Shown here in pieces: positions 1,602 through 20,159 of a DNA stretch of 64,000 nucleotides. Under the pieces are notes generated by a model. It was not told the DNA's origin. It saw only the letters and a program-made list of their open reading frames with translations, and searched no databases. The stretch is taken from contig OX327697.1 in NCBI GenBank assembly GCA_946807835.1, positions 1,689,001 through 1,753,000 on the forward strand, given 5' to 3'. Origin of the DNA: Ailanthus altissimus. Taxonomy: Eukaryota; Streptophyta; Magnoliopsida; Sapindales; Simaroubaceae. The translations under genes were made by a program, and so were the position numbers. Positions within the stretch are counted from its first letter, which is position 1. Every line of letters starts with the position of its first letter.

Positions 1602-1889
1602 TGTTGGGTTTGAGAAGTACAAGGTAGTTTATTGTTTAAGGGAAAGAAAAACAACTCCTTAACAACTCAAATGTTGTTCTCCGTTCTACTTTTTTAACAA
1701 AGGTTACAAGAATTTAAATACTTGAACTATAAGAGTTCAACTTAAACTAAAAGACTTATTAAATCTAAACAACTTGATCTTTAGCAATTCAAATTCAAAA
1801 TGACTTCTAACTAAAAAATTCCTACAATCCTTGAACTTGAGATTGTTTATTTGACCTAGTCTAATATAGAAAATACAGTATCCTCAACA
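1602..1889 (-). repeat. Copia A 3' LTR
   Basis: The LTR has TGTTG...CAACA ends and pairs with 19872-20159 at the same length. ATTCC directly precedes it. Confidence 0.93.
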
Positions 1890-1916
1890 CTCCTCCTTGC
1901 TATCTTTGTTGCATAC

Positions 1917-3473
1917 TGATGAACACATGAAAATGCATGTTGTTAAGAGATTCAATCACCATTTAATGTCACTAATTTTAGTATTTTCTGTATTTTTAGC
2001 TTGAAATAAAGTGTTCTCCTTAAATTGTGATTAATGAATATTATTTGGACAGGTTTAGGTAAACTGGACATAACTCTCAATGTAGAAATCGAAATGAAGA
2101 AATTCTTGAACCTGGTGCAACATGACTCAATCTTACACAAATTTGAAGAATAGTGGAAAAGCCAAATCCAATATGTTATGGGCCAAAAATTGAGATACAA
2201 CAGAATCGGACTATAACTCTTACCCAGCTTGACCCAATTCACGTATTTGGACCGTATCTCACAAAATACGTATTCAATTGGTATAATTCTTGAAGCTGTG
2301 AATTTTTGACTTAACTATCAACAACTCGTATGTTTATGGTAAAGTCCGAATCAGCCGTTATCATGGACCAAATCGCATTGCAAGTGGGTAAAATGGTTGT
2401 TGGCCGAATTCTGATGTATCTTTGGAATATTGCTCATATCTCATTGGATACTCATCCAATTTGCATGAAATCAGTGCCTATGGGAAGAAGAGTCAAAATT
2501 CTACAACTTTCATGTCGGATGCAGAAGCTGAATTGATCATTTACATTATCAAAAATATGCTGTAAATGGATACACGAGTTATTGGCTTAAAATTATTGAA
2601 GATTGATGTCATCCATGACATATGTCCATTCATTGCCTATATAAGGAGACACTTAGGACGTTTTTATATATAAATAATTCTCTCTTCTTTTATTCTCATT
2701 AACATGTATTGTAATTTAGGCTAAAGTTCCTAGCAAGGCTAAGAGATGAACTTTTATGTGTAGTAAATCTACTTCCATGCTTTGATTCGGTGTCAAGAGC
2801 TATAAATGTTGTAAGTTTGGTTTTGATTAAACTCTTATCTATTTTATTTTCTATAATCTAGAGGTTATAATTCTCATGTCTCATATATGTTCAGTCATGC
2901 TTTTCTTATGTGATTCATGCTGATTTATAATTGTTACTGGTTACATTATTTTATATGTTAATCTTTTACATCAGTATTGTCAATTTGATATATTGTCGAT
3001 CTTGGATAACATGTAAGGGCAATAAATGTTTGATATTCAAGTTAATATTTTACTGCAATATTTTCAAAATGATATATTGTCGATCTTAGATAACTTGTAT
3101 AAATAACATGATGTGTGTTAATGCTTGCAAAGAGTTTAACTAAATCAAATACATGTGTTATCAAATGTGCTATATATTACATACCTTCCGATTGATTGTT
3201 TGGGATGTGAAACTTTCAGTTGAGTTATAAATATCGAATCAAAGTATAGAGTAGATTTATAAAGCATAATTGTGATTCTCAAAGCCTTGCTTAAATCATC
3301 ATAAGACATTTTCCTCAATTCATAGACAATTCTATCTCATCCGTTTAAATCAATTAACCCTTTGCTACTGCTTTAATATTTTACTTCACTAACCTATTTT
3401 GCCAAGAGCTTTCTCGTGGGATCGACACCTCAATCTATACTGCGATAGCCGCGTTATATTTTGAGCGTAAACA
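1917..3473 (+). repeat. Gypsy A 5' LTR
   Basis: The 1557-bp LTR begins TGATGAACACATGAAAATGC and ends TTGAGCGTAAACA. It pairs with 12822-14378. The duplication CATAC precedes it and the primer-binding site follows after six bases. Confidence 0.96.
2638..2644 (+). promoter_or_regulatory. TATA box of the gypsy A LTR promoter
   Basis: TATATAA in the context cctatataaggagac sits 722 bp into the LTR and is identical in the other LTR (13543-13549). Transcription would be expected to start about 30 bp downstream, near 2670. This would leave a long R/U5 and a leader of about 1.57 kb before gag. Confidence 0.7.
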
Positions 3474-3479
3474 AAAATT

Positions 3480-3497
3480 TGGCGCCGTTGCCGGGGA
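3480..3497 (+). other. Primer-binding site, tRNA-Asp
   Basis: TGGCGCCGTTGCCGGGGA is complementary to the 3' 18 bases of plant tRNA-Asp including its CCA end. It lies six bases after the 5' LTR, as expected for minus-strand priming. A tRNA-Asp primer is typical of Athila-type elements. Confidence 0.88.
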
Positions 3498-3613
3498 GGC
3501 ACACTAAGCGAAAGTTGGTTGCGATTATAAATACTAAAGTGGTAACTTTGTACATTTTCTTTTCTTTGTAAAATCTTAATTTTATTTCCTTTGTTGTAAT
3601 TTATTTATTATTC

Positions 3614-4157
3614 ATGGTTGGTTCTACCACCTAATTTATTTTGTTTTCTTTAGTTAATTTGTTATATTTTATATTATCTTAATGGCTGGTTTTACCGCCT
3701 AATTAGTTTATTTTCTTTTATTTATTTATCGCACTTTATTTTCTTTAGTTTATTTATTGCACTTTTTTTTAATGGCTGGTTTTACCGCCTAACTTCGTTC
3801 ACTTTCTTTTATTTATTTATTGTACTTTTTTTAGTTAATTTGTTGTATTTTCTTTTTATTTTGTGGCTGGTTCTACCGCCTAACTTAGTTTCTTTATTTC
3901 TTATTGTACTCTATTTATTTATTGCACTTTTTTTTATTGTACTTTATTTTCATTTTCTTTTACGTATTTACTGCAATTTATTTTCTTTAGTTAATATGTT
4001 GTGTTTTCTTTTTATGACCGGTTCTACCGCCTAACCTTTTATTTATTTACTTATTGTATTTTCTTTTTATTATTTATTTATTGTATTTATTTTTCGTATT
4101 TTATAGTCTTTTGTTTAGTTATTGTATTTATATTTCATGGTTGGTCTTACCACCTAA
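3614..4157 (+). repeat. Six copies of a 21-bp micro-ORF/hairpin unit in the gypsy A leader
   Basis: Units lie at 3614-3634, 3682-3702, 3772-3792, 3863-3883, 4014-4034 and 4137-4157. The core is GGYTGGTTYTACCRCC, and five of six units read as ATG, five more codons and TAA (MVGSTT, MAGFTA, MAGFTA, MTGSTA, MVGLTT); the fourth begins GTG. The core can fold as GGC/GCC or GGT/ACC, a bulged T, then GGT/ACC closing a three-base loop. The outer pair changes together: C-G in copies 2-5, T-A in copies 1 and 6. T-rich spacers of about 50-130 bp separate the units. The leader has no long ORF that I believe in. Confidence 0.85.
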
Positions 4158-4241
4158 CTTATTTCTATTTCTTGTTGTGTTTATTCCACTTCTTAATTTT
4201 CCTTAAGCATTTCTTTCCTAAAAACAAAAAAATTAGGATGT

Positions 4242-5990
4242 ATGCATCGACCTAGAGACAAACGAGGAAGATTTATGAGAGAACTAGAACTAGAACTAGA
4301 ACCACCCCCACAATTTGTAAGTGAAGAGAATTCACCTTCTAGTTCATCTTGTAATTCTAACACAATGAGCCAACACGAAGAAAACCCCGTTAGAACTCTA
4401 AAAGATTACTTGCATCCTACTCGCACAGCCACACCATCATGCATTATATTTCCACCTAACACACCACATTCGGATTTTAAACCTGGAATGATACAACTTC
4501 TTCCCACTTTTCATGGTCTAGATAGTGAAAATCCTTATGTACATGTTAGGGAATTTGAAGAGGTAATTGCCACCTTTCATAGCCAACCTGAAGCCATAGA
4601 CACTGTTAGACTTAAATTTTTCCCTTTTTCTTTGAAAGACAAAGCAAAGAGTTGGTTATACTCTTTGAGGCCGAGGTCTATAGGAACTTGGACAGAAATG
4701 ACCCAAGCATTTTTCAATAAATACTTCCCACAACACAAAACTAATGGCCTGAAAAGAAAAATTTCTTCCTTCTCCCAAAAAGACAGTGAAACCTTATATC
4801 AAACATGGGAAAGGTTTAAAGAGTTGCTAAATCTGTGCCCTCACCATGGGTATGAAAATTGGCGCTTGGTTAGTTATTTCTATGAGGGACTCACAATTAG
4901 AGAGCGCCAATTTGTTGAGATGATGTGTAATGGGGAGTTCCTTCACAAAGATCCCGAGGAAGCCATAGAATTCCTTAATGACTTAGCCGAAAAAGCCCAT
5001 ACATGGACTGGACCTAGCGTTACTGAAAGCACAAATAGGTCACGACCCAATGGAGTTTTCCATCTTAGGGAAGAGGATAACCTCAAAGCCCAATTAGAGG
5101 TCTTAACTAGGGAGTTAGAGGCCTTAAAAACCAAAGATAGAAGGGTCACCCACACGGTTGCTAAAGTTGAGTCACATGATGTCTGTTTTGTCTGTGGAGG
5201 AGCGGAACACTTAGCTCAGGATTGCCCCACGTATAGTGAGATGAGAGGGATATATGAGGAACAATGTAATGCCCTAGGGATGTACAAGAAGCCTTATTCA
5301 CCCTACTCTGAAACATATAATCCTAGCTGGAGAAACCACCCAAATTTCGGTTGGAAATCTGACCAACAAGTCAACAACCAATGGAAACAAGAACAACAAG
5401 CACCCAAGTCTTATGTTGCACCTCAATATAATGCACGACCAACTAGGAGTTCTTTAGAGGATACATTACAAGCATTTATGGAGGCACAAAGTAAGACTAA
5501 TAAAAAATTTGAAACAATTCTTGCACAGGTGGTGGACGAAAACAAAGAAATCAAGAGTCAAATCACAAAGTTGACCAGTGCCTTAACTGTACAAGAGCGA
5601 GGTAACAAAGAAATCAAGAGTCAAATCACAAAGTTGACCAGTGCCTTAACTGTACAAGAGCGAGGTAAGTTTCCATCTCAACCTCAATCCAATCCGAAAG
5701 GACAATTCATGGCACAAGCTTCTACTTCTGATGTTCAAAATCTCAAAGAAGTCAATGCCATTACTACTCGAAGTGGTAAGATTGTAAGTGAGCCTACTCC
5801 TGAAATTAACACATCTACGAGTAGTAAAGACGCCCCCCTTGAAAAAGAGGCCATAGTGAAAAAAGAGCCCGAAAGTAAGTTTTCAATCCCAGTGCCTTTT
5901 CCTCAAGCTCTTCGACCGGTTGGGAAAAATTCAGAAATTCAAGGTGAGATTTTGGAACATTTGAAACAAGTTAAAATTAATCTTCCCTAG
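4242..5990 (+). CDS. gag: Gypsy A gag (capsid and nucleocapsid)
   Basis: This 582-residue ORF encodes the structural Gag protein that packages element RNA in cytoplasmic particles. A retrotransposon gag domain spans roughly residues 85-235 (including LKFFPFSLKDKAKSWLYSL). A CCHC zinc knuckle, CFVCGGAEHLAQDC, lies at residues 315-328. A low-complexity, Gln/Lys-rich tail follows, with an exact 21-residue tandem duplication (bases 5541-5666). ATG 4242 is the first in-frame start after the repeat leader. The ORF ends at TAG 5988-5990, but homology continues in the same frame into the protease, so this stop is probably a mutation inside a single gag-pol ORF. Confidence 0.9.
   Translation: MHRPRDKRGRFMRELELELEPPPQFVSEENSPSSSSCNSNTMSQHEENPVRTLKDYLHPTRTATPSCIIFPPNTPHSDFKPGMIQLLPTFHGLDSENPYVHVREFEEVIATFHSQPEAIDTVRLKFFPFSLKDKAKSWLYSLRPRSIGTWTEMTQAFFNKYFPQHKTNGLKRKISSFSQKDSETLYQTWERFKELLNLCPHHGYENWRLVSYFYEGLTIRERQFVEMMCNGEFLHKDPEEAIEFLNDLAEKAHTWTGPSVTESTNRSRPNGVFHLREEDNLKAQLEVLTRELEALKTKDRRVTHTVAKVESHDVCFVCGGAEHLAQDCPTYSEMRGIYEEQCNALGMYKKPYSPYSETYNPSWRNHPNFGWKSDQQVNNQWKQEQQAPKSYVAPQYNARPTRSSLEDTLQAFMEAQSKTNKKFETILAQVVDENKEIKSQITKLTSALTVQERGNKEIKSQITKLTSALTVQERGKFPSQPQSNPKGQFMAQASTSDVQNLKEVNAITTRSGKIVSEPTPEINTSTSSKDAPLEKEAIVKKEPESKFSIPVPFPQALRPVGKNSEIQGEILEHLKQVKINLP
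5541..5666 (+). repeat. Perfect 63-bp tandem duplication inside gag
   Basis: Two identical, adjacent 63-bp copies (5541-5603 and 5604-5666) keep the frame and add 21 residues (NKEIKSQITKLTSALTVQER plus Gly). Complete identity suggests a very recent duplication. Confidence 0.97.
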
Positions 5991-6104
5991 TTACATTTGA
6001 TTAAGCAGGTTCTAACTTATGCCAAAGTCATCAAGGATTTATGTACTATCAAAAGAAAACACCATGTGAAGAAAACTGCATTTTTGGCAGAATAGGTAAG
6101 TGCA

Positions 6105-6554
6105 GTGATTGAACAAAAGACACCACCCAAGTATAAAGACCCAGGATGTCCCACAATCTCCTGCCAAATTGGGACACATGAGTTTGGTCAAGATTTATTA
6201 GACTTAGGAGCAAGTGTAAATTTAATGCCTTATTCTATTTACTTGCAGTTAGGACTTGGTGAGATTAAACCAACCTCTGTAGTCCTACAATTAGCTGACC
6301 GATCAATCAAGAAACCACGGGGAATAGTAGAAGATGTTTTGTTGCAAATTGATAAATTTTACTACCCTGTTGATTTTCTTGTTTTAGATACTCATTCTGT
6401 TGTTAACATGGAGTCAAAAATCCCTTTTATTTTAGGGAGACCTTTTCTAGCCACTGTTAACGCTCTTATTAATTGTAGAAATGGTCTAATGAAATTATCT
6501 TTTGGGAATATAACTCTTGAGGTTAATATTTTCAACATTGGCAAACAACCATGA
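6105..6554 (+). CDS. Gypsy A protease segment of gag-pol
   Basis: This 149-residue segment carries the aspartic-protease motif in its Athila form, DLGASVNLMPYSIYLQLGLG, and the second conserved block ILGRPFLATVNALI. The enzyme would cut the gag-pol polyprotein inside particles. It is in the same frame as gag. Bases between them still encode polyprotein-like sequence (IKQVLTYAKVIKDLCTIKRK) but hold a nonsense TAG at 6093-6095 in addition to the one at 5988. The segment ends at a third in-frame nonsense codon, TGA 6552-6554, after which the frame stays open again. Confidence 0.85.
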   Translation: MIEQKTPPKYKDPGCPTISCQIGTHEFGQDLLDLGASVNLMPYSIYLQLGLGEIKPTSVVLQLADRSIKKPRGIVEDVLLQIDKFYYPVDFLVLDTHSVVNMESKIPFILGRPFLATVNALINCRNGLMKLSFGNITLEVNIFNIGKQP

Positions 6555-6581
6555 GAAGAAGACGAGTGCTATCATTCATAT

Positions 6582-7559
6582 ATGATAGACACATTTGTAG
6601 CAGATGAAGCTTATAAAAATCATGGCTATGATTCTTCAAAAAACCTTCTCAATTTTGATTTTGAAGAAATGTATTATCCTGATGTAACAACTGATGTGTT
6701 TAGTATTTTTGACTCACAACACAAAGGGACTCGATTTTGGCAGCCACACTTTGAAGAGTTGCCACGAGAGAGGGAGAAACCGAAACCATCAAACCTCGAG
6801 ACACCACAAGTTGATCTTTCTCCACTGCCTAAAGGTTTGAAACACGCATTCTTGGGACCAGATGATACCTTTCCTATCATCATTTCTTCTGAACTTAGTG
6901 CTGAACAAGAGGAAAAATTGATAAAATTGTTAAAAGAACATAAGTCTGCACTAGGTTGGACCATAGCTGATATTAAAGATATTTCTCCATTGATATGCTC
7001 CCATAGAATTCATTTAAAGGAAGGTGCCCAACCTCGTAGAGACCCACAAAGAAGACTTAACCCAACAATGAAAGAAGTAGTGAAGAAAGAGGTCTTGAAA
7101 CTATTAGATGCAGGTATAATCTACCCAATTTCTAATAGTCAATGGGTAAGTCCAACTCAAGTAGTTCCTAAGAAATCTGGGGTTACTGTTGTTGAATATG
7201 AGAATGGGATACCTATTCCAACTAGGGTAGTAAGTGGTTGGAGAATGTGTATTGATTATAGAAAGTTAAACACAGCCACTAGGAAAGACTATTTTCCATT
7301 GCCTTTTATCGACCAAATTTTAGAACGTGTAGCTGGACATCCTTTTTATTGCTTTCTTGATGGGTATTCAGGATATTACCAGATTGAGATAGCTATAGAA
7401 GATCAAGAAAAAACTACTTTTACATGCCCTTTTGGTACTTATGCTTTTCGTAGAATGCCATTTGGATTATGTAATGCACCAGCTACTTTTCAGCGTTGCA
7501 TGTTGAGTATTTTTTCTGATATGGTTGAAAATGCATGGAAGTCTTTACGGATGATTTGA
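6582..7559 (+). CDS. Gypsy A reverse transcriptase, N-terminal part
   Basis: The same frame as gag and protease reopens here and encodes the fingers and palm of a Ty3/gypsy reverse transcriptase: [43 protein letters not shown] and NAPATFQR in the right order. Just before the catalytic YXDD-type motif, near 7533-7545, a one-base loss moves the rest of the polyprotein into another frame, and this reading stops at 7559. The enzyme of this copy is therefore broken. Confidence 0.88.
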
Positions 7560-9715
7560 CTATTTTTGGTAATTCTTTTGATTTATGCCTACTTAACTTG
7601 AAATCTGTTTTGAGTAGGTGTGAAGAAAAAGGACTTGTGCTAAATTGGGAGAAATGTCATTTCATAGTATCTTCAGGAATCGTTTTGGGGCATGTTGTAT
7701 CTGAAAGAGGGATAGAGGTTGACAAGGAAAAAATTGAATTAATCTCTAAATTACCTACACCTAAAACGGTAAAAGATGTCCGATCCTTTCTTGGACACGC
7801 TGGCTTTTACAGAAGGTTTATACAAAATTTTTCTACCATATCTAGACCATTGTGTAACCTTTTGTTAAAAGATGCAGAATTTACATGGACACAAGAGTGT
7901 GAGGAGGCATTCCGAACACTCATTGCCAAACTCACCACCGCTCCTATCATGCAATCACCGGATTGGAACCTCCCATTTGAAATTATGTGTGATGCAAGTA
8001 ATTATGCTGTAGGAGCAGTTCTTGGGCAACGGAGGGAGGGAAAACCCTTTGTTGTTTATTATGCTAGTAGGACTTTGAATGATGCTCAAATGAATTACAC
8101 TACTACTGAAAAAGAACTATTAGCTGTTGTTTTTGCCTTAGATAAATTTCGTTCTTATTTGATTGGTTCACCTATTGTTATTTTTACTGACCACGCAGCC
8201 CTTAAGTATCTTCTTTCTAAGAAGGATGCTAAAGCCCGTTTAATTAGGTGGATTCTTCTTTTGCAGGAATTTGATATAACCATCAAAGATAAGAAATGTG
8301 TTGAAAATGTTGTTGCTGATCATCTATCCCGCCTTGAGTTCACTGACTCTACTGATTTGCCACCCATTCGAGATGATTTTCCAGATGAACATCTTTTTGC
8401 TATAAGCCAAATACCTTGGTATGCACATATCGTAAATTATTTGGTTTGTGGTGAACTTCCATCTGACTGGAGTGCACAAGATAAGCGTAAGTTCTTGGTT
8501 GAGGTACGTAACTTTTATTGGGATGATCCATATCTTTTCAAATACTGTCCTGACCAAATCATGAGACGTTGCATTCCTGAAAGTGAAGTTTCTAGTGTCT
8601 TAAATTTTTGCCATAGTGCTGCTTGCGGTGGCCATTTTTCTATGAAGAAGACAGCTGTGAAAATTTTACAGTGTGGTCTTTATTGGCCCACTTTGTTCAA
8701 AGACACTAATAATTTTTGTCGTTCCTGTGAAAGATGTCAAAAGTTAGGTGCTTTATCTCGAAGAAATATGATGCCTCTTAACCCTATTATTGTTATTGAG
8801 ATATTTGACTGTTGGGGTATCGATTTTATGGGTCCTTTTCCTTCATCTTTTGACTATCTTTACATCCTTTTAGCTATTGACTATGTATCAAAATGGGTGG
8901 AGGCTATAGCTTGTCGTACTAATGATAATACAACTGTGGTAAAATTCTTAAAACAAAATGTGTTATCTAGGTACGGTACGCCACGTGTCATCATTAGTGA
9001 CCAAGGAACACATTTTTGTAATCGTTCTTTTAAAGCTTTGATGCACAGGTATGGTGTTCTTCACAAATTTTCCACTGCATACCATCCACAGACAAATGGA
9101 CAAGCCGAGCTAGCAAATAGAGAGGTTAAACAGATTTTGGAAAAGACGGTTAACCCGAATCGCAAAGATTGGTCTCTACACCTTTCTGATGCATTATGGG
9201 CATATCGCACTGCATACAAAACCATCTTAGGAATGTCTCAATACCGGCTTGTTTATAGGAAAGCTTGTCATTTACCTGTTGAGCTAGAACATAAAGTTTA
9301 TTGGGCTGTCAAAGCCCTTAACTTTGATTTGAATGCTGCAGGTCTTCAGAGAAAGTTACAATTGTCAGAAATAGAAGAGCTACGAAATGACGCATATGAC
9401 AACTCCAGAATTTACAAAGCTAAAATGAAAGTAGCTCATGATAAACAGATCTCAAGGAAACACTTTGAGCCAAATCAACGGGTCTATCTTTATGATTCTC
9501 GATTACATTTACACCCTGGAAAGTTGAGATCTCGATGGACTGGTCCATTTATGGTAAGACATATTTTTCCTAATGGTGCTGTTGAAATAGAAGACCCCAC
9601 TGATGGACGGACTTTCAAAGTGAATGGACAGCGGCTAAAAAGCTACGTGGAAAAGGTAAACGACTCTATGTACCTAGGCGAGATCCCTCTTATGGATCCT
9701 GTCTATCGTGATTAA
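7535..9715 (+). CDS. Gypsy A RT C-terminus, RNase H and integrase
   Basis: This 726-residue open frame begins with the RT active-site box FTDD, then the thumb ([16 protein letters not shown]). RNase H follows ([14 protein letters not shown] from about residue 150; [24 protein letters not shown]). The integrase has an HHCC zinc finger (about residues 360-400) and a core with Asp near 429 (GIDFMGPFP), Asp near 489 (ISDQGTHF) and Glu near 525 ([10 protein letters not shown]), the DDX35E spacing. A C-terminal part ([20 protein letters not shown]) ends it. The listed ATG is only the first Met after the frameshift; in an intact element this would be the second half of gag-pol. No premature stop interrupts it. 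Confidence 0.9.
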
Positions 9716-9963
9716 TCAGGTTCAATCTATCTGTACCATATTTTATATTTTGTCTATATTTTACCTTTTGACTTTCTATTTTTGCTTTTATTTTCTTGCA
9801 CATTTTATTTTACTTTATTTTCTTCTTTTTATTTTTTCTTCAGTGTGATTTTATTTCCCGATCAAGTGGCGGATACGGTACTCCGTGACTATTAAAGTCA
9901 GTTTCTCAGTTCCCTAAAAACTGTCCCTCAAACTGTGCATTCATCTCTTTTCTTTCTTTCAAA
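9716..9963 (+). other. Spacer between integrase and first accessory ORF
   Basis: This T-rich, apparently non-coding stretch contains no clear TATA box or splice acceptor. How the downstream ORF is expressed (splicing, internal promoter or reinitiation) cannot be read from it. Confidence 0.5.
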
Positions 9964-10512
9964 ATGGATCGCATTCTTGCCAATCTTAAAAAACGTTTTC
10001 CTTCATTTCCTCAAAATGCTCTACTTAAGATTTACAAAGCACGGTGTGAAAGACTAAGGCTATTGATGTTGGGTAATATCCCTGTGGACCTTCGTTGGTT
10101 AATTGAAGCCAAGGTTCGGTTGTCTGGTGAGTTTGAAAATGATTTTATTTCTCATATGCCTGGTCTTGGAAGAAGCTCCTATGCCAAAAGGCGACGAGCA
10201 AAAAGGTTACAAATCTGTCATAAATGTGCTCGATGGAATTGTAATCGGAGTTGTCGTTCTTTAGGATTCGTATCTAGAAATCGAGAAGACAAAATTCAGT
10301 TCATTAAGGATGGACTGAGTAAGGAGTCTTTGGATGATATCCTATTGACTCTTGAGACGCATCCCTGTGGGCTCGTGCAACGTGAACTTCTCGATTTATG
10401 GAACAAATTTAAAAATGAACATCAACGGTATAGTCTCGGGAATCTGACTCTAAAAGACCCTGTTTGCCAATTTATAAGAAAATTGGATGGGAAGCCTATC
10501 CCCGACCCATAG
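9964..10512 (+). CDS. Accessory ORF 1: basic cysteine-rich protein, perhaps related to carlavirus nucleic-acid-binding proteins
   Basis: This intact 182-residue ORF sits 248 bp after integrase and 312 bp before the LOG ORF, wholly inside gypsy A. The centre (about residues 68-118) has a basic run, RSSYAKRRRAKR, followed by a Cys cluster, CHKCARWNCNRSC (CX2CX4CX3C), and then a motif ending IQFIKDG. That order (small polar residues, Arg/Lys run, Cys cluster, FIK-Gly) resembles the cysteine-rich nucleic-acid-binding proteins of carlaviruses (Pfam Viral_NABP), small proteins reported as silencing suppressors or host-gene regulators. The Cys spacing differs, and the last 65 residues have no counterpart that I recognise. 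It has no signal peptide or membrane segment. Homology is inferred by eye. It could instead be an unrelated zinc-binding or captured host protein. Confidence 0.75.
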   Translation: MDRILANLKKRFPSFPQNALLKIYKARCERLRLLMLGNIPVDLRWLIEAKVRLSGEFENDFISHMPGLGRSSYAKRRRAKRLQICHKCARWNCNRSCRSLGFVSRNREDKIQFIKDGLSKESLDDILLTLETHPCGLVQRELLDLWNKFKNEHQRYSLGNLTLKDPVCQFIRKLDGKPIPDP

Positions 10513-10764
10513 AGGGCGTTTAAGCCGTTACTTGACGTAAAACTAGAGGAAGATGTGAGCCACAATCACAACTACTTGTAAATACATGTGTTTTAATTTC
10601 AAACTTTATTTTATGAATAGTAGGGCTACTCATGTAGATGTCTTAAATTCAAATCTTTTTGTTCAATAACGCATGTGGGCCATTATGTTTAAATTTTTGT
10701 GCTTTATTTTTAACTCTCTTTTGACAAACTGTCGGGTTACCATAATTGTTATCATTTGGTACTC

Positions 10765-10772
10765 TATAAATA
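10765..10772 (+). promoter_or_regulatory. TATA box in front of the LOG ORF
   Basis: TATAAATA in the context actctataaatacagcacc lies 53 bp before ATG 10825, a normal distance for a plant core promoter with a short 5' UTR. The sequence AAGGTGAGT (10810-10818) just before the ATG also matches a splice donor, so splicing in this region is possible. Function is inferred from sequence alone. Confidence 0.55.
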
Positions 10773-10824
10773 CAGCACCTCATTTTCTTCATTTTCATAT
10801 ATTGAGATAAAGGTGAGTGTAGAT

Positions 10825-11472
10825 ATGGAGGAAACCCAAGTTCGACAATTTCGAAATATATGTGTATTTTGTGGATCTAGTCCTGGGGAGAGTAAAGTGT
10901 TCGTAGAAGCAGCAAATAATCTAGGAAAAGCATTAGCTGCAAGAAAAACTCATTTGATTTATGGAGGAGGTAGCCTTGGGCTAATGGGGTGTGTGTCAAC
11001 AGCTGCACATTTAGGAGGAAGTCAAGTTTTAGGTATTATTCCTACAGCTTTGGCCGTGGGAAACCTGACCGGAAAAACAATAGGGGAAGAATTACAAGTC
11101 TCATCCATGCATGAACGTATAGCCAGAATGCTTTGCAATGCAGACGCTTTTATTGCTTTACCAGGTGGTTTCGGTACCTTGGAAGAAATTTTTCAAATTG
11201 TCTCTTGGGCCCAACTGAATATCCACCGAAAACCCATAGGTTTGTTGAATGTTAATAACTATTTTGATTGCTTACTTTGTTTTCTTGATCAAGCTGTAGA
11301 ACAGAATTTTATTTCACATTTGGCGCGACAGATCCTGATTTCTGCTACTGAGGCAGATGAATTGATTAACAAATTACAGGCAGTTACCTACGAACATGAC
11401 CCAGCAATAACTCGGATCGATTGGTCAGTGGGCCTTAACAAGCGAAAATTGGATCTGACACTTCGTTTGTAA
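10825..11472 (+). CDS. LOG: LOG-type cytokinin riboside 5'-monophosphate phosphoribohydrolase carried by gypsy A
   Basis: LOG enzymes cut cytokinin riboside monophosphates to the free active base plus ribose 5-phosphate, the direct activation step, in the cytosol and nucleus. From ATG 10825 the protein has 215 residues, the normal LOG length. An upstream in-frame ATG at 10756 adds 23 residues but lies before the TATA box, so I prefer 10825. The motifs are ICVFCGSSPG (12-21), GGGSLGLMG (47-55), MHER (95-98), PGGFGTLEE (113-121) and KPIGLLNV (136-143). The catalytic Arg and Glu positions are kept, but the Lys usual after that Arg is Ile99. Host LOG genes have several introns; this one has none, which suggests capture through an RNA intermediate. 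There is no frameshift or stop. It is not a host gene hit by the element, because it lies between integrase and the 3' LTR of one element with matching target duplications. Confidence 0.92.
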   Translation: MEETQVRQFRNICVFCGSSPGESKVFVEAANNLGKALAARKTHLIYGGGSLGLMGCVSTAAHLGGSQVLGIIPTALAVGNLTGKTIGEELQVSSMHERIARMLCNADAFIALPGGFGTLEEIFQIVSWAQLNIHRKPIGLLNVNNYFDCLLCFLDQAVEQNFISHLARQILISATEADELINKLQAVTYEHDPAITRIDWSVGLNKRKLDLTLRL

Positions 11473-12821
11473 ATTTTTCTTTTTATTTATTTATTTATCA
11501 GTACCATCATTTTAGTTTATATTTGCTTAAGTGTCTCTCAGGTTTGTTTCTTTCAAATAACTGGCGTTTCAGGTAATGTCTCCTATACTTTATCTCTTTC
11601 TATTTAAACATTGAGGACAATGTTTCATCTGGTTTGGGGGGAGGATAGTAGACATACGTTGCATTTTGTAAAAAAAAAAAAAAAAAAATTGTGGTCCGAC
11701 ATTTGATTAAAATGACAGAGTAAAGAGTTCATTCTTGAACTCTTGAGACGCATTCTAGGTCAAATTAGAATGGCAGAGTAAGGAGTTTTAGTACTAACTT
11801 TTGAAATGCATTTTAACTAACTTTTTGTTATTTTGTTTTATATTTCATGCATTGTCGTTTACTGCTTGTAGTCTTGGTAATTCTTGTATAAAGGAATTTG
11901 CTTTTCTGCCTAACTATGATTTCAGAATTGTTTAGGTTGATTCATTGTTTCTATCTAGGTTACTAAAGAATGACTTCCAAAATATTTTTGAGCACAATGC
12001 TAAGCCTTGTGGTAAGATGGATGATTCAATTTATATAGCCAAGAGAATTTCCATGTTTAAGTATATATTTTTCTAATCTCACATATCTTTTGTGAGTAAG
12101 TGGAAAGGATGAGAAAACAGCTTATAAACCTTCATTGTTCCTTTGAATTGGTTAATTTTTGTTTAGAATGATATTATTTGAATTAAGGGATAAGTTGGTT
12201 GCATTTGTGCATAATATAATTTGGTGAGAAACCTTTGTAATGCTTCCTTGTATTCTTCAAAAAAAAAAAACACAAAAGTACCAAAAACAAGAAAAAAAAA
12301 AAAAGCAATTCAGTTTAATAAAGTCTTCATTCAATTTTAGAAGACAAATACCTTGTAAAATAGTTTTCTCACCAAGTTATAATTGTATTATTCTCACAAG
12401 CCAATTAAAGTTCTAAAGTTGGCGTATGATATGAATAATTGATTTTTAAACAAATAATTTTCCTATCTTCGGATCAATGTTAGTTTATATGTCTGTCTTT
12501 AAAATTGACTTTTTCTTGAATGCTTAACTGTTTTCCAACTCCATAAGAGAAGTCCTAACCTTTTAAACAGTCATACACCTGTGAGGATATGGAGTTGAGG
12601 CTTTTACTTGGAGAAATTCTCAAGGCTATATCTATTGTGGTTTGTGGTTAGATGGTTATGGCTTAGTTCACACACACACAAATTATGGAAGTTGTAATTG
12701 AAAAAACCATGATAGCAACAGTGATCTCGAACTGACGTTTTGATTGAAATGTTTAGGTAGTTTTGCATATTCTATTTACGCTTGAATTGCTAGAGACTAG
12801 CAATAAGCTGGTTGGGGGCTG
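11473..12821 (+). other. Gypsy A 3' untranslated region with a purine tract
   Basis: There is no ORF. At 11612-11645 an 'acattgaggacaatgt' block is followed by 'ggtttggggggaggat', a block commonly seen in the 3' region of Athila-type elements. Poly-A runs lie at 11671-11688 and around 12259 and 12292. The bases directly before the 3' LTR ('ggttgggggctg') are the likely, poor, polypurine tract for plus-strand priming. Confidence 0.65.
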
Positions 12822-14378
12822 TGATGAACACATAAAAATGCATGTTGTTAAGAGATTCAATCACCATTTAATGTCACTAATTTTAGTATTTTCTGTATTT
12901 TTAGCTTGAAATAAAGTGTTCTCCTTAAATTGTGATTAATGAATGTTATTTGGACAGGTTTAGGTAAACTGGACATAACTGTCAATGTAGAAATCGAAAT
13001 GAAGAAATTCTTGAACTTGGTACAACATGACTCAATCTTACACAAATTTGAAGAATAGTGGAAAAGCCAAATCCAATATGTTATGGGCCAAAAATTGAGA
13101 TACAACAGAATCGGACTACAACTCTTACCCAGCTTGACCCAATTCATGTATTTGGACCGTATCTCACAAAATACGTATTCAATTGGTATAATTCTTGAAG
13201 CTGTGAATTTTTGACTTAACTATCAACAACTCGTATGTTTATGGTAAAGTCCGAATCAGCCGTTATCATGGACCAAATCGCATTGCAAGTGGGTAAAATG
13301 GTTGTTGGCCGAATTCTGATGTATCTTTGGAATTTTGCTCATATCTCATTGGATACTCATCCAATTTGCATGAAATCAGTGCCTATAGAAAGAAGAGTCA
13401 AAATTCTACAACTTTCATGTCGGATATAGAAGCTGAATTGATCATTTACATTATCAAAAACATGCTGCAAATGGATACACGAGTTATTGGCTTAAAATTA
13501 TTGAAGATTGATGTCATCCATGACATATGTCCATTCATTGCCTATATAAGGAGACACTTAGGACGTTTTTATATATAAATAATTCTCTCTTCTTTTATTC
13601 TCATTAACATGTATTGTAATTTAGGCTAAAGTTCCTAGCAAGGCTAAGAGATGAACTTTTATGTGTAGTAAATCTACTTCCATGCTTTGATTCGGTGTCA
13701 AGAGCTATAAATGTTGTAAGTTTGGTTTTGATTAAACTCTTATCTATTTTATTTTCTATAATCTAGAGGTTATAATTCTCATGTCTCATATATGTTCAGT
13801 CATGCTTTTCTTATGTGATTCATGCTGATTTATAATTGTTACTGGTTACATTATTTTATATGTTAATCTTTTACTGCAGTATTGTCAATTTGATATATTG
13901 TCGATCTTAGATAACATGTAAGGGCAATAAATGTTTGATATTCAAGTTAATCTTTTACTGCAATATTTTCAAAATGATATATTGTCGATCTTAGATAACT
14001 TGTATAAATAACATGATGTGTGTTAATGCTTGCAAAGAGTTTAACTAAATCAAATACATGTGTTATCAAATGTGCTATATATTACATACCTTCCGATTGA
14101 TTGTTTGGGATGTGAAACTTTCAGTTGAGTTATAAATATCGAATCAAAGTATAGAGTAGATTTATAAAGCATAATTGTGATTCTCAAAGCCTTGCTTAAA
14201 TCATCATAAGACATTTTCCTCAATTCATAGACAATTCTATCTCATCCGTTTAAATCAATTAACCCTTTGCTACTGCTTTAATATTTTACTTCACTAACCT
14301 ATTTTGCCAAGAGCTTCCTCGTGGGATCGACACCTCAATCTATACTGCGATAGCCGCGTTATATTTTGAGCGTAAACA
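12822..14378 (+). repeat. Gypsy A 3' LTR
   Basis: It is 1557 bp, pairs with 1917-3473 at about 98.8% by eye and is followed by the duplication CATAC (14379-14383). Its TATA box at 13543-13549 is intact. Confidence 0.96.
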
Positions 14379-14383
14379 CATAC

Positions 14384-14719
14384 TCCAATTCTTTCCCTAA
14401 GATGTTAAAATCTTGTTTTGGATAATCCTTTAGTAAGAATATCTGCAAGTTGAGACTCTGCATTGCAGTGTACCAGTTTTACTTCTTCTTCTTTCTACAC
14501 TTCTCTTAGATAGTAGTATTTGATTTTGAAATGCTTAGTCTTACCATAAAACACAGGATTATTAGAGATGGCTATGGCAGCTTGCTTGTTAACATATAGA
14601 ACAGTAGCAATCTCTTGTTTTAAACTTAAGTCTGCCATAATTTTTCTTAGCCACACAACTTGATTTACTGCTGCCACAACAGCAATATACTCAACTTTTG
14701 CAGTGGATTGAGCTACCAC
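14384..14719 (-). pseudogene. Copia A RNase H end of pol
   Basis: Minus-strand sequence from about 14719 encodes the copia RNase H tail: VAQSTAKVEYIAVVAAVNQ, NKQAAIAISNNPVFYGKTKH. An in-frame stop at 14495 cuts it before the usual C-terminus. Gypsy A inserted just beyond this end. Confidence 0.85.
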
Positions 14720-15960
14720 CTCTTATTTCCTAGTGCTCTAACTAAAACAACCTAATCCAAAACTGAATAAGTACCCTGAGGTGCTTTTCATATCCTCACA
14801 TACTCCTGCCTAATCACTATCTGTATAGCCATGCAAATCTAACTTTTTTGTCTTTATGAAACTGATGCCATAGTCAGTTGTCCCTTTAATGTACCTCAAT
14901 ACCCTTTTTGCTGCCTTTAAATGAACTTCCTTAGCACAATTTAGGAACCTTGATAGCAAATTCACAGTGAAGGCTATATCAGGCCTTGTTGCTATAAGAT
15001 ATATCAAACATCCAACCATACTCTTATAAAGACTTTCATTTGTTATCAGTGCATCAGTCTCAGAACAAAGTTTCTCATTCAAAGCTAAGGGAGTATCCAT
15101 AGCTTTGTATTCTCCCATTTTAAACTTCTTCAAGATCTCATTAGCATACTTCTTTTGTCCAATAAGCAATCCTTTCTTGGTTTGCTGTATTTTCATTCCA
15201 AGAAAGTATGCCATTTCACCCAAATCATTCATCTCAAATTCTCCTTGCATTTGTTCTTTAAACTCCTTTATGATCTTAGAATTGCTTTCAGTTATTAGCA
15301 AGTCATCAACATAAACTGATACAATTATCAGATTATGAATTTTAAGCTTAACATATAATGTTGACTCACTAAGGCTCATTTTAAAGCCTATACTCAGTAA
15401 GTATTCATCAATTCTGCTATACCAAGCTCTTGAAGCTTGCCTTAATCCATAAATGGCCTTTTTTCAGTAAATAAACCTTTCTAGGTGCTGTCACAAACCC
15501 TTCTGGTTGTTCAACAAAGATTTCCTCTTGCAAATGACCATTTAGGAAAGCTGATTTTACATCCAACTGGTATATCTTCCATTGTTTCTGTACTGCAATA
15601 GCATAAAGAAACCTAATAGTGTCTAACCTTTCTACTGGTGCAAATGTTTCAAAAACATCCACCCCAAACTGTTGTGCATAGCCTTTCACAACTAACCTTG
15701 CCTTGTACTTGTTTATGGTTCCATCTGCATTCAACTTTGTCTTAAACACCAATTTTACTCCAATAACCTTCTTGTGAGTTGGTCTGGACACAAGCTCCCA
15801 AGTTCTGTTTTGTTTATCATCCTTATTTCTTCCTTCATTGCTGTTATCCATTTTTCATCCTCTACTGCTTCTGCATATCCTGCTGGTTTCAATACTGCTA
15901 CATTGTATTTCTGATAAATGTCAGTAAGTAGCTTAGTTCCTCTAACTAGCATGTCATCTA
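14720..15960 (-). pseudogene. Copia A reverse transcriptase
   Basis: On the minus strand two overlapping blocks (15851-15417 and 15379-14810) give a copia RT. N-terminal [18 protein letters not shown] and [20 protein letters not shown] are followed by the catalytic box SVYVDDLLIT, DLGEMAYFLGMKI and YKSMVGCLIYLIATRPDIAF. A frameshift between the blocks and stops within them show that it is dead. Confidence 0.9.
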
Positions 15961-16033
15961 TGGTGTCTTCATTTATTTGATCAGATACTCTCTCATCTGA
16001 ATACAGCCTTCTAGGTTCAGTTTTAACCCAATC

Positions 16034-17058
16034 CTATTCTGCTTCTTCATCAAAGATTACATTCCTGCTGATGATGAACTTCTTGATTAGAGGTTGATAA
16101 ATTCTGTAGCCCTTGCTAGTAGAACTATAGCCTACAAAGACTCCAAGTTCAGCCTTTTCATCAAGCTTGCCCCTCTTTATATCTGGAATAAGAGTGTAGC
16201 ATAAGCTTCCAAACACTCTTAAGTTAACAACATTAGGCTTGAACCCATACCAGACTTCATAGGGAGTTTTCCCTTTCACAGCTTTGGTTATAAGCCTATT
16301 TAAGATGAATATTGCTGTGTTTACAGCCTCTGCCCAAAAATACTTTGACAAGTTTTTCTCAAACAACAAGCATCTAGCCATCTCCATACTTGTTCTATTT
16401 TTTCACCCACTCACACCATTTTGTTGGGGTGAGTAAGGGACTGTAAACTGATGTTGTATCCCTGCATCTTCACAAAGTTTGATAAGTTTTGCAGCAGTAA
16501 ATTCAGTTCCATTATCTGATCTAAGTGTCTTGATTTTGCTATGGCATTGATTCTCAATCCAAGTTTTAAACTTCAAGAATACCTCAGCTACTTCAGATTT
16601 TTGTTTTAAGAAGTAAACCCAGCACATTCTACTATAATCATCAATAAACAAAATGAAATACTTGCTGCCATTAAGAGATTCTGTTGACATGGGACCATAC
16701 ACATCTGTGTGAATCAACTGTAGCTTTTCAGAGGCTCTCAATGCCTTATTTGCTAGATATGACATCTTAGATTGCTTCTCCAGTTGACAAGCTTCACATA
16801 CGTTTGACTCTTCACTAGTATAATCCATCCCAAGCACAAGTTTTTCCTTCTGCATGTACTCTAAAGCAGTCTTGTGGAAGTGTCCCAACCTCTTGTGCCA
16901 TAAGTCTGCTTTCTTGAGAACACAAGTATATGCAGACTGCTTTTCCCATGACAGGCTAAAGCTTTTGTCTTTTATAGCAATAGAAAATAGCACAACTCTA
17001 TTTGAATCTGATATTTCACATTTGTTGTGCTTAAACACTACTGAGTACCCTTTTTGCA
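16034..17058 (-). pseudogene. Copia A integrase
   Basis: Minus-strand blocks encode a GAG_pre-integrase region (LWHKRLGHFHKTALEYMQ), then the integrase core with HTDVYGPM, LRSDNGTEF and PYSPQQNGVSG. A downstream part (MARCLLFEKNLSKYFWAEAV, GSLCYTLIPD) sits in another frame after a stop at 16403. A solo LTR inserted at 17059-17063 separates this region from the protease. Confidence 0.9.
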
Positions 17059-17063
17059 GTAGT

Positions 17064-17147
17064 TGTAATACACGTGTAATATTTATATATTTGTTAGTGG
17101 CAATGAAAAAAAAAAGAGAGAAAATAGAAAAGAATTGAAGAGGCGGC

Positions 17148-17189
<42 letters not shown>

Positions 17190-18595
17190 TGTTTGCTTCG
17201 TTGAAAAGAAGCAATTGAAATTGAGAAGAAAAGAAGAAAAGTGAAAACAGAGAAAGAAAGAAAGAAGAGAAAGCCGAGAGAAGAAGAAAAGAAAGAAAAG
17301 AAAAGAAGAAAAAGAAAGGGGAAGGAAGGAACCGGGAAGGAGAAAGAAACAGAGAAAGAAAAAGAAGAAAAAAAAAAGAGAAAAGAAAAAAAAATAAATA
17401 GAAAATTTTAGGAAATTAGTTTGGGTAGTCAGATTTATACCCAGTGGTTTAGCGGGTAATACTTTTGCGATATTAGAATATTTATATTTTAATAGTTATA
17501 ATACATATCGGCACACTCCTATGATATAAGAGGTGTGCCGATAGCGGGTAGATCTCAGAATCCAGACCTAGCTCAGGATTAGCGCACTTTTGTGAGTGGA
17601 TAACTATATATATTTTATATATTTTTAATACAGCCAATTATGATTTAATTGCGCGTTATCAGATTTAATTATGATTTATTTCAGACAGAAAAATATTTAT
17701 ACTATTTAGTATATTCAGAAATATTTTAGAATTTATTATAGTACAGTTTATAATTATGTTCAGTACAGAAATAATTATTTCAGAATAATTATGGTCATGA
17801 TATTATATTGTAATAATTTTTGAACCACCATATGCGTACCCTCCCTTTAGTGTAATTGCTCTGCGCATGCGTTAGACTAGTTTAGTTTGCTCTACCCGAG
17901 CGATGTAACATTCCGCCGGGTTAGACCAGCTTAGATCCTCCACTCTGCCTGTGCGTGAGTTACTCCGCCAGGTTAGACCAGATTTACCCCGGGTACAAGT
18001 TTGGTGTGGTTTTCAGTATATATATATATATATATATATGTAGTACATATTTCTAGAGTTATGTTACATATATTCAGCTTGATAATAGATTTTATGATAG
18101 TTTGCGCTTTCAGATTTTCAGATCCCAATATTATGTCATGATTTTAATTTCAGCACAGATTTTATGACAGTTCATATTTTCAGTACAAGTTTATTGATTA
18201 CTCAGTATACGGTTTTATGATTATTTTATCATACAGATTTATATGTGTACAATACATATAAAGTATATGATATTTTCAGATTATGTCCACTCACTGAGCC
18301 ATAAGTTCACCCTTTTTCCTATTTTTCCTATTTTTCCCAAGTTGTCATAGGAATTTGTGCAGTGTGATACAGTCATCACATTTTGAGGTTGGCCAACGTG
18401 CATAGCTGCATAAGTGTCTCAGTCTGTGTATTTGTATATGTTTTGTATAGTGGAACACATGTGTACATTTTTTGTTGAGGCAAGTAGCCTCATTGTATCA
18501 TATGTATGAGTAAAGAGTATGTTAGTCATGTGTCATCGCAGGATTTGCCTCGATTCTCGAAGAGGGCTCGGGTCGGGTCCTGTCAGTAGTTGACC
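17064..18595 (+). mobile_element. Solo LTR of a Ty3/gypsy element inside copia A
   Basis: A 1532-bp sequence starting TGTAATACACGTG and ending GGGTCCTGTCA is flanked by the 5-bp duplication GTAGT (17059-17063 and 18596-18600). The copia reading frame is continuous across it (LLQKGYSVV to one side, NLLSVGQLL to the other). It has no internal region, so it is a solo LTR left by recombination. It contains (TA)n runs at about 17152-17182 and 18018-18039 and an extremely A/G-rich stretch at 17200-17400. Orientation is assumed from the typical TGTAATAC start. Confidence 0.9.
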
Positions 18596-18600
18596 AACAC

Positions 18601-18970
18601 TAAGCAAGTTCTAGTCAATTTTTGGAACATACAACACATCATTGATCCGTTTAGCTCCTCTTAGACTCATAATCTTCACTGTTCCCTTCCCTTTAACATC
18701 AATCAACTGCCCATTTCCAATTCTCACCTTGGATACTGCAGTTCTATCAATCTTTAGAAAATTTGAGACCTCAAATGTCATGTGGTTTGTGCAGCCACTG
18801 TCAATCAACCAAGCATCATTGATCATGTTGTTTCCTACAAAACAGGTAGCTACAAACAACTGATCCTCCTACTGTTGTTGTACTGATTGTGCTTGTGTTT
18901 GTTGAGCTTCCTTTTGTTTATTTTTACAAAACCTGACAATGTGTCCCTTCTATATGCATGATCTGCATTC
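18601..18970 (-). pseudogene. Copia A zinc knuckle and protease
   Basis: The minus strand encodes a CCHC knuckle (CRSCI-stop-KGHIVRFC, with a stop inside it) and then the aspartic protease motif WLIDSGCTNHMTFE with the RIGNGQLIDVKGKGTV and INDVLYVPKID blocks. It runs toward the integrase, from which it is split by the solo LTR. Confidence 0.87.
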
Positions 18971-19786
18971 TACTTCAGGACTTTGCCAGCAGCTTGTTGA
19001 TTAATGGTTGGTCTTATTGCAGTGAGAACATGGTGGAAATTTTGGTTTAAACACTGTACTGGTACCAGGTTTACTTTTCCTCTGATTTCTTTTGTTCCAA
19101 TACTTCTTTCCTTTGCCATCCCCTGAGTGTTTATTATGTTCCTGTGCTGGTAAGGCTCCTTCAACAGTTTCTTCACACCTGTATGACCTTCTCTGCTCTT
19201 GTGTTTGCAAGGCATTGATCAACTCAGGTAATGTGATAGTTGACAGGTCTCTTGATTCTTCAAGAGATGAGATTTTGGACTCAAATCTCTCTAGAAGTGT
19301 AACAAGAATTTTTTCAACAACTCTCTTGTCAGGCAGTTGTTCTCCAAGCAACCTAATCTTGTTGACAATTTGCATCAACTTATCAGCATAATCTCTGAAC
19401 TTTTCTCCTTCTTTCATCTTCTGCATTTTGAATTCTCTCCTAAGATTCAAATTCTGCATTTGTTTTGATCTAGCATTACCTTGGTATTCTTGTTTAAGAA
19501 GATCCCATGCTTGTTTTGCTATCTCACAAGTCATGATCTTGCTAAATATCACTTCTGAGACTGCAGAGAATATACAAGTCTTAGCCTTGAACATTCTTCT
19601 TCTTTCTTCTCTTAGGTTTCTTATTTAAACTACTGTGGGATCATCTGGTAACTGTGCCACTTCTCCTGTGTCAACCAGATCCCATAGATCATTTGCCTGC
19701 AAGAAGGCTTCCATCCTAATAGCCCAAACTTGATAATTTTCTCCTGAAAATACTGATGGCATAGCCATATAATTATTACCTGCCAT
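18970..19786 (-). pseudogene. Copia A gag
   Basis: The minus-strand start at 19786-19784 gives MAGNNYMAMPSVFSGENYQVW, a typical copia gag N-terminus. After an in-frame stop near 19627 the same protein continues (IMTCEIAKQAWDLLKQEYQG; FRDYADKLMQIVNKIRLLGEQ). The start lies 73 bp inside the primer-binding site. Confidence 0.88.
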
Positions 19787-19871: not shown

Positions 19872-20159
19872 TGTTGGGTTTGAGAAGTATAAGGTAGTTT
19901 AGTGTTTAAGGGAAAGAAAAACAACTCCTTAACAACTCAAATATTGTTCTTCGTTTTACTTTTTTAACAAAGGTTACAAGAATTTAAATACTTGAACTAC
20001 AAGAGTTTAACTTAAACTAAAAAACTTATTAAATCTAAATAACTTGATCTTTAGCAATTCAAATTCAAAATGATTTCTAACTAAAAAATTCTTACAATCC
20101 CTAAATTTGAAATTGTTTATTTGACCTAGTTTAATGCAGAAAATACAGCAACCTCAACA
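19872..20159 (-). repeat. Copia A 5' LTR
   Basis: This is the 288-bp partner of 1602-1889, followed by the duplication ATTCC at 20160-20164. Confidence 0.94.

What the first reader, a model, noticed from the sequence alone, without database searches (positions are those of the whole stretch)
10825..11472. A complete cytokinin-activating LOG gene carried inside an LTR retrotransposon
Seen: an intact 215-residue LOG ORF with PGGFGTLEE and GGGSLGLMG lies between integrase and the 3' LTR of gypsy A, and the LTRs and matching CATAC duplications enclose it. It has no introns. Known: LOG enzymes release active cytokinin bases, and Athila relatives can hold an env-like ORF at this position. Inference: the element captured a spliced LOG mRNA and spreads it. 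Local cytokinin release could raise cell division or meristem activity, where transposition is most likely to be inherited. The same coding length as host LOGs and the lack of stops, in a copy whose pol is broken, suggest that it was under selection until recently.
Basis: partly seen in the sequence, partly recalled or inferred. Interest (0 to 1): 0.93.

Follow-up and report, generated by a model that had tools for sequence, protein, structure and literature searches.

The report
Cytokinin gene spread by plant retrotransposon
A jumping element in a plant genome carries an intact copy of a gene that switches on the growth hormone cytokinin, next to a virus-type zinc-finger gene, and has spread the pair to at least a hundred places in that genome.

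Summary
Confirmed. Window 10825-11472 is an intact 215-aa type-I LOG gene inside a 12.5-kb Ty3/gypsy element of Athila type, with LTRs 98.8% alike and matching CATAC duplications. It is no one-off: in the 939-Mb source genome 150 LOG hits were scored (of 6311 candidates), each covering at least 214 of 215 residues at 95-100% identity. All 20 fetched loci have LOG directly before the same 3' spacer and LTR. For 98 of 150 CRP hits a listed LOG starts 853-882 bp downstream.

LOG (YgdH) in Citrus and poplar gypsy elements is already in print. New, as far as my searches show, are the CRP-LOG pair, its recent amplification (also in pol-deleted copies) and its modular loss.

Selection is modest: corrected for sampling bias, LOG pN/pS is 0.43-0.52, with intervals up to 1.01. 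Broken and LOG-less subfamilies also spread. Catalytic Arg and Glu are kept in 114 and 118 of 120 listed relatives.

Best reading: non-essential, host-manipulating accessory genes; that benefit is inferred.

The parts
1912..1916 (.). target-site duplication CATAC, 5' copy
1917..3473 (+). 5' LTR (TG...CA), 1557 bp
   Evidence: 98.78% identical to the 3' LTR; K2P 0.0123
3480..3497 (+). primer-binding site TGGCGCCGTTGCCGGGGA, complementary to the 3' end of tRNA-Asp (tRNA match recalled)
3613..4158 (.). degenerate direct repeats of about 91 nt in the leader, before gag
4242..5990 (+). gag ORF, 582 aa
   Evidence: PF03732
6105..6554 (+). protease ORF piece
   Evidence: PF13650, 23 bits, just under its cut-off of 24.3
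6582..7559 (+). reverse transcriptase, first part; pol is split over two frames in this copy
   Evidence: PF00078
7535..9715 (+). rest of RT, RNase H, integrase; no chromodomain or second RNase H among the Pfam matches
   Evidence: PF17917, PF17919, PF00665, PF17921
9964..10512 (+). CRP: 182-aa cysteine-rich nucleic-acid-binding protein of carlavirus type
   Evidence: PF05515 33.3 bits (cut-off 23), PF01623 27.8 bits (cut-off 20.9); 542 relatives
10765..10772 (+). TATA-box-like TATAAATA ending 53 nt before the LOG start
   Evidence: unchanged in the 17 of 20 copies that aligned; the same 8-mer occurs 7 more times in window 1-14400, mostly in the LTRs; promoter function untested
10670..11472 (+). 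segment missing as a unit in four LOG-less copies: upstream region plus CDS to the stop codon
10825..11472 (+). LOG gene, 215 aa, single ORF
11473..12821 (+). non-coding 3' spacer ending at the G-rich tract TTGGGGGCTG before the 3' LTR
12822..14378 (+). 3' LTR
14379..14383 (.). target-site duplication CATAC, 3' copy

Best explanation
LOG and the neighbouring CRP are standing accessory genes of a recently active, high-copy Athila-type LTR retrotransposon family. Shown: both are intact ORFs between integrase and the 3' LTR, copied with the element many times, also by copies that lost much of pol. LOG keeps the catalytic residues of cytokinin riboside monophosphate phosphoribohydrolases. Inferred: LOG is expressed from its own TATA-type promoter and/or the LTR transcript and releases active cytokinin in cells where the element is transcribed. 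Inferred: CRP works like carlavirus zinc-finger proteins, in the nucleus on transcription and in the cytoplasm against RNA silencing. Together they would favour dividing, less-silenced cells, where new copies are inherited. Because both products can act for all copies in a cell, single copies may lose LOG and still spread. Selection then acts on the lineage and is weak per copy.
For: LOG hits: 134 of 150 scored without a stop, 34 with one identical score. For 98 of 150 CRP hits a listed LOG starts 853-882 bp downstream of the CRP start, 864 bp in 89. LOG-spacer-LTR order in 20 of 20 fetched loci; full-length CRP in 17 of the 19 whose upstream was fetched. LTR K2P 0-0.0052 in 10 of 11 dated copies; two have identical LTRs, one of them with pol deleted; perfect 5-bp duplications in 10 of 11. 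Catalytic R98 kept in 114 of 120 relatives, E121 in 118 of 120 (roles in PMC5379747, passages). pN/pS: CRP 0.31 (0.16-0.68, n=37), RNaseH-integrase 0.28 (0.15-0.58, n=11), LOG 0.52 (0.32-0.88, n=56 picked by CRP). In a quick tree relatives fall into lineage-specific swarms, e.g. Reevesia, Populus, Diplodiscus. A carlavirus CRP is reported as transcriptional activator and silencing suppressor (PMC7588395, passages).
Against: The sample weighted to the CRP list gives LOG pN/pS 0.43 on average over 20 draws (0.38-0.48); one such draw was bootstrapped: 0.48, interval 0.27-1.01, and the 28 copies outside the LOG list alone give 0.70 (0.46-1.16). Singletons and variants shared by 3 or more copies do not differ significantly (Fisher p 0.25), and 5 stop variants are shared by two or more of 56 copies. 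Of 40 CRP-selected loci outside the LOG list, 29 had LOG broken, shortened or absent, five with one frameshifting deletion and four with one LOG-less junction. CRP is broken in 5 of 37 full-length copies, among them one pol-deleted copy. PGGxGTxxE is exact in 102 of 116 relatives only. No expression or enzyme data exist here. The CRP fold model failed (mean pLDDT 50).
Confidence: 0.55

Rival explanations
1. Passenger: LOG (perhaps CRP too) was captured and amplified with the element but does nothing for it; it looks intact because the burst is recent.
For: LTRs nearly identical in 10 of 11 dated copies; LOG interval reaches 1.01 in the weighted sample; LOG-broken and LOG-less subfamilies multiplied; the second LOG family also has 17 stop-bearing rows of 115, six with one and the same score.
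Against: Listed full-length relatives at 60-75% identity mostly keep the catalytic residues, many in lineage-specific swarms; neutral genes would not stay open over that divergence. This assumes that those relatives are element-borne, which was not seen directly. CRP and pol in the same copies have low ratios.
Confidence: 0.25
2. LOG protein repurposed: the element-borne LOG no longer serves as a cytokinin enzyme but as a regulator through its C-terminal LxLxLxL tail (resembles the EAR repression motif, recalled).
For: Tail ends L-x-L-[ST]-L-x-L in 76 of 116 relatives tested.
Against: The catalytic Arg and Glu are conserved (114 and 118 of 120), which a purely structural role would not require.
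Confidence: 0.08
3. Host benefit: the plant uses element-borne LOG copies as cytokinin genes and keeps them for itself.
For: Many open, contiguous copies exist.
Against: Copies are dispersed over contigs and, where looked at, young insertions carried with the element.
Confidence: 0.04
4. Artefact: misassembly or contamination joined a LOG gene to the element.
For: None found.
Against: Same junctions at 20 of 20 fetched loci.
Confidence: 0.005

Closest known systems
Athila-type gypsy elements with an extra ORF similar to LOG (YgdH domain) in Citrus and Populus: Steinbauerova et al. 2011 (not held; recalled, and seen as cited) and PMC9289625 (section 12 read)
   Same: LOG-type domain in a gypsy-type LTR element of a rosid plant
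   Different: The section read gives YgdH consensus hits only, and the words Carla and NABP do not occur in that paper's main text (supplements not seen); no copy ages, selection, pol-deleted carriers or LOG-less copies in that section
Orchid (Phalaenopsis) gypsy elements with an m6A RNA demethylase ORF (PMC9289625, passages)
   Same: Extra enzyme ORF captured and kept by a gypsy family
   Different: RNA demethylase, shown active in vitro; here a hormone enzyme, untested
Carlavirus/mandarivirus cysteine-rich proteins (CVB p12, PMC7588395, passages; CYVCV and CiYMaV CRP, PMC12172455, abstract)
   Same: Pfam Carla_C4/Viral_NABP, basic stretch followed by cysteines
   Different: Here in a retrotransposon, 182 aa; the cysteine pattern C-x2-C-x4-C-x3-C was not compared residue by residue with the viral ones; function untested
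Plant type-I LOG enzymes (AtLOG3, AtLOG8)
   Same: Family, PGGxGTxxE, catalytic Arg and Glu
   Different: 52% and 48% identity; contiguous, multi-copy, distinct C-terminal tail (full AtLOG ends not compared)

Membership tests
LOG, type I | PGGxGTxxE motif | tested here: met
   PGGFGTLEE at residues 113-121; exact in 102 of 116 relatives
LOG, type I | catalytic Arg and Glu (Arg155/Glu178 of CgLOGII, 23 apart) | tested here: met
   R98 and E121, 23 apart; roles from PMC5379747 passages
LOG, type I | curated family score | tested here: met
   TIGR00730 166.5 bits, cut-off 96.35
LOG, type I | NCBIfam equivalog NF058542 (CtkRMPhLog) | tested here: not met
   117.3 bits, cut-off 300; that cut-off belongs to a narrower equivalog model, not to the LOG family as a whole (my reading)
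LOG, type I | phosphoribohydrolase activity | not testable with these tools
   needs purified protein
Athila lineage of Ty3/gypsy | gag-PR-RT-RH-INT order, no chromodomain, no additional RNase H | tested here: met
   Pfam scan of gag and pol ORFs, protease just under its cut-off; Tat is set apart by aRH (PMC6317226 passage)
Athila lineage of Ty3/gypsy | tRNA-Asp primer-binding site | tested here: inconclusive
   site at 3480-3497; tRNA match and lineage link recalled
Athila lineage of Ty3/gypsy | RT/INT phylogeny | not tested
   no reference set on hand
Carlavirus-type NABP/CRP | Pfam gathering scores | tested here: met
   PF05515 33.3 (cut-off 23), PF01623 27.8 (cut-off 20.9); PF01623 in each of the 120 listed relatives
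Carlavirus-type NABP/CRP | four cysteines of the zinc finger | tested here: inconclusive
   C85, C88, C93, C97 kept in 125, 130, 135 and 129 of 136 element-type relatives; spacing not compared with viral sequences
Carlavirus-type NABP/CRP | nucleic-acid binding, silencing suppression | not testable with these tools
   bench assay needed
retroviral env-like ORF | transmembrane/envelope-like protein | not tested
   no transmembrane prediction run; both 3' ORFs match enzyme and zinc-finger families instead

The most novel reading that the evidence does not exclude
A plant LTR retrotransposon lineage with a virus-like host-manipulation module. A viral-type zinc-finger protein eases RNA silencing and/or reprograms transcription, and a hormone-activating enzyme raises local cytokinin. 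Together they favour proliferating cells in which new insertions reach the germ line. The module is exchanged between subfamilies by recombination, supplied in trans, and also carried by pol-deleted copies.
Probability: 0.28. Interest if true: 0.88.

Novelty: new variant of a known kind. Interest (0 to 1): 0.62.

Why it matters
Most extra ORFs of plant LTR elements have no known function. Here two of them have namable, testable activities: a hormone enzyme and a viral silencing-suppressor/transcription-factor type. They sit in young, high-copy insertions. That turns the question whether transposons manipulate plant development or silencing to their own ends into a set of ordinary enzyme and reporter assays. 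It also warns that LOG gene family counts in plants may be inflated by transposon copies. The Neumann 2019 survey predicted extra ORFs of at least 250 codons only (PMC6317226, passage), so ORFs of 182 and 215 codons would fall below it.

Tried and rejected
Rejected: one-off passenger (150 scored copies) and misassembly. Withdrawn by me: the first selection estimates, LOG pN/pS 0.25 (n=20) and 0.32 (n=40). Those copies had been chosen by similarity of the LOG protein, which hides amino-acid changes, so I resampled by CRP.

Poor control: the integrase-end remnant gives 1.22 in five pol-deleted copies, but also 1.44 in eleven others, so it does not show relaxed pol in deleted copies alone. In the same biased set LOG gave 0.15 and CRP 0.18 in the five, 0.29 and 0.23 in the eleven. 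A short gag piece gave 0.15 (0.00-0.74, n=6).

Led nowhere: viral-contig scans with LOG and CRP (patterns matched, no relative confirmed); solved structures for CRP (best E 0.47); AlphaFold2 of CRP (mean pLDDT 50, so no fold search); the host LOG with introns (all 150 scored rows are contiguous, near-full-length repeat copies); the profile search with CRP meant to reach viral relatives (722 hits, no row among the 120 shown is named as viral, apart from one automatic name 'Viral nucleic acid binding'). The 8723 pair, both 97% identical to the window, is convincing; the others are suggestive.

Full report
ORF 10825-11472 encodes 215 residues with PF03641 and TIGR00730 well above cut-off and a 226-bit match to AtLOG3 over residues 3-202. 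The element spans 1917-14378: two LTRs of 1557 bp, 98.78% identical, K2P 0.0123, flanked by CATAC on both sides. With rates recalled from the literature (1.3e-8 and 7e-9 per site and year) that is about 0.5-0.9 My. gag, RT, RNase H and integrase pass Pfam cut-offs; the protease piece falls just under. Pol is split over two frames in this copy.

A second accessory gene was missed. ORF 9964-10512 (182 aa) passes the gathering scores of Viral_NABP and Carla_C4, the zinc-finger proteins of carlaviruses. It is no chance match: 542 relatives were found and each of the 120 listed carries PF01623. The four cysteines are kept in 125, 130, 135 and 129 of 136 relatives. Named hosts in the list include Populus, Xanthoceras, Acer and Rhamnella. 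Papers report carlavirus p12 as transcriptional activator and silencing suppressor (PMC7588395, passages) and mandarivirus CRPs as pathogenicity determinants (PMC12172455, abstract). [quoted passage not shown] that paper is not held.

LOG is amplified with the element. Searching the window's own 939-Mb genome gave 6311 first-look candidates, of which 150 were scored: 149 cover residues 1-215 and one 1-214, at 95-100% identity, 134 without a stop, 34 with one identical score. I fetched 20. In 20 of 20 LOG is followed by the same spacer and LTR. Upstream was fetched for 19; 17 have full-length CRP (one with a stop, one with a 1-nt insertion) and two have lost part of it together with the end of integrase. 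Six of 20 lack 2.2-2.5 kb of pol, all with the same left edge at 6807, four with the same right edge at 9290-9292. So pol-deleted copies spread with the accessory genes; one of the six (L012) has the frameshifted CRP.

The family was active very recently. Of 12 LTR pairs tried, 11 could be dated: ten have K2P 0-0.0052 and one 0.017. One pol-deleted copy and one copy without that deletion in the part fetched have identical LTRs. Ten of 11 show perfect 5-bp duplications; in the eleventh the 3' LTR match stops short of the LTR end, so its flanks were compared out of register and are not resolved.

CRP and LOG travel together, but not always. CRP gave 4850 candidates, 150 scored, 6 of them with a stop. 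For 98 of the 150 a listed LOG starts 853-882 bp downstream of the CRP start, in 89 exactly 864 bp. Of the other 52 I fetched 40: 28 have full-length LOG (11 intact), five share a 136-bp frameshifting deletion, two have other deletions (90 and 62 bp), one is truncated, and four lack 10670-11472 as a unit. That unit starts upstream of the TATA-like box and ends at the LOG stop codon. In CRP the LOG-less copies differ from 17 LOG-bearing copies by 0.5-1.1%, against 0.65% among the latter, and in the integrase end by 1.2-1.8% against 1.3%. Next to the junction they differ by 2.7-5.9% (four copies upstream, three downstream) against 0.5-1.0%. The start of the 3' LTR, measurable in two of the four, is also further off (3.0-4.0% against 1.4%), but so is the window copy there (3.7%). 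I read this as recombination with a LOG-less lineage, so that the module is exchangeable; loss and gain are not told apart.

Selection. Copies picked by LOG score gave LOG pN/pS 0.25 (n=20) and 0.32 (n=40), but that choice hides amino-acid changes. Copies picked by CRP gave 0.52 (0.32-0.88, n=56). Weighted to the make-up of the CRP list, the mean of 20 draws is 0.43 (0.38-0.48) and one bootstrapped draw gives 0.48 (0.27-1.01); the 28 copies outside the LOG list alone give 0.70 (0.46-1.16). For CRP in LOG-picked loci the value is 0.31 (0.16-0.68, n=37 of 40), for RNase H-integrase 0.28 (0.15-0.58, n=11). In the 56 copies singletons are near neutral (0.89), variants in two copies 0.81 and variants in three or more 0.45; singletons and the last do not differ significantly (Fisher p 0.25), and five stop variants are shared by two or more copies. 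So constraint on LOG within this genome is moderate at best. The longer view is stronger: 7826 proteins match (7999 candidates scored), most of the 120 listed at about 60-75% identity, with R98 in 114 and E121 in 118 of the 120, the two catalytic positions by comparison with PMC5379747 (passages).

Phylogeny. A quick tree was made of 116 of the 120 listed relatives (P0002, P0003, P0032 and P0039 left out), the window, AtLOG3, AtLOG8 and the LOG of PDB 5zbj; the careful search did not finish. The window pairs with P0001 (99). The 116 relatives and the window separate from the three reference LOGs (97), and Reevesia, Populus, Diplodiscus and Paulownia rows form tight swarms. With two canonical plant LOGs only, the host source is not located. 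Three listed Xanthoceras proteins (P0002, P0003, P0039) look like doubled LOGs, and P0002 contains a stretch like the end of this gag (by eye). Querying the genome with AtLOG3 showed a second contiguous LOG family: 115 of 150 rows align over residues 5-198, against 35 rows of the window's family type starting at residue 3. Those of the 115 that lie on C9 and C18 do not overlap the list; the other contigs were not compared one by one. 17 of the 115 carry a stop. Its context could not be fetched, so that it too is element-borne is inferred.

Expression is inferred. TATAAATA at 10765-10772 ends 53 nt before the LOG start and is unchanged in 17 of 17 aligned copies, but the same 8-mer occurs seven more times in window 1-14400. 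A splice-donor-like AAGGTGAGT lies at 10810-10818, the only one in that stretch, and an acceptor-like TTTTTTCTTCAG at 9832-9843, upstream of CRP. No RNA data were available.

Prior art. PMC9289625 (section 12 read) reports the YgdH (LOG) domain in gypsy consensus sequences of two Citrus species and, without filter, Populus trichocarpa, citing Steinbauerova et al. 2011. That paper is not held; I recall its abstract naming two Athila-like elements similar to LOGL4. Hence LOG in such elements is known. For a carlavirus-type CRP in retrotransposons I searched three times (2 papers, both listed; none; 12 of 39 listed), and for LOG in retrotransposons (20 of 185 listed; 20 of 1,194; 6 of 6; 15 of 908; 6 of 11). 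No title or abstract start in these listings pointed to CRP in a retrotransposon or to the CRP-LOG pair. The papers themselves were mostly not opened, and most subscription journals are outside the library.

Verdict. An ordinary Athila-type element in its backbone, with a CRP-LOG accessory module that is recently amplified, often intact and dispensable per copy. Host manipulation through cytokinin and silencing or transcription is the best-supported guess for its role; no step of that role has been shown.

Noticed in passing
1602-1897 and 19872-20168; ORFs 14810-19594 (-): 297-bp repeats, 92.6% alike, bracket the gypsy element and a minus-strand set of copia-like ORFs: the gypsy element seems nested just inside one end of a Ty1/copia element (copia identity by eye).
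   Followed up: no
window LOG residues 206-215: C-terminal LxLxLxL tail resembling the EAR repression motif (recalled), ending L.L[ST]L.L in 76 of 116 relatives; absent from the matched parts of AtLOG3/AtLOG8, whose full ends were not seen.
   Followed up: partly
G000:C3:33583065/33593891, C1:28384995/28395848: LOG copies about 10.8 kb apart in the same orientation, as expected of tandem elements sharing an LTR.
   Followed up: no
G000, e.g. C18:15537715, C2:8155112: Second high-copy contiguous LOG family (115 of 150 rows), including six stop-bearing rows with one identical score.
   Followed up: partly
10810-10818: Splice-donor-like AAGGTGAGT just before the LOG ATG.
   Followed up: no
60210-63118: Tandem array of units of about 277 bp, roughly 73-77% alike.
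   Followed up: no
L027: LOG copy flanked by further LTR and spacer pieces on both sides: nested or rearranged insertions.
   Followed up: no
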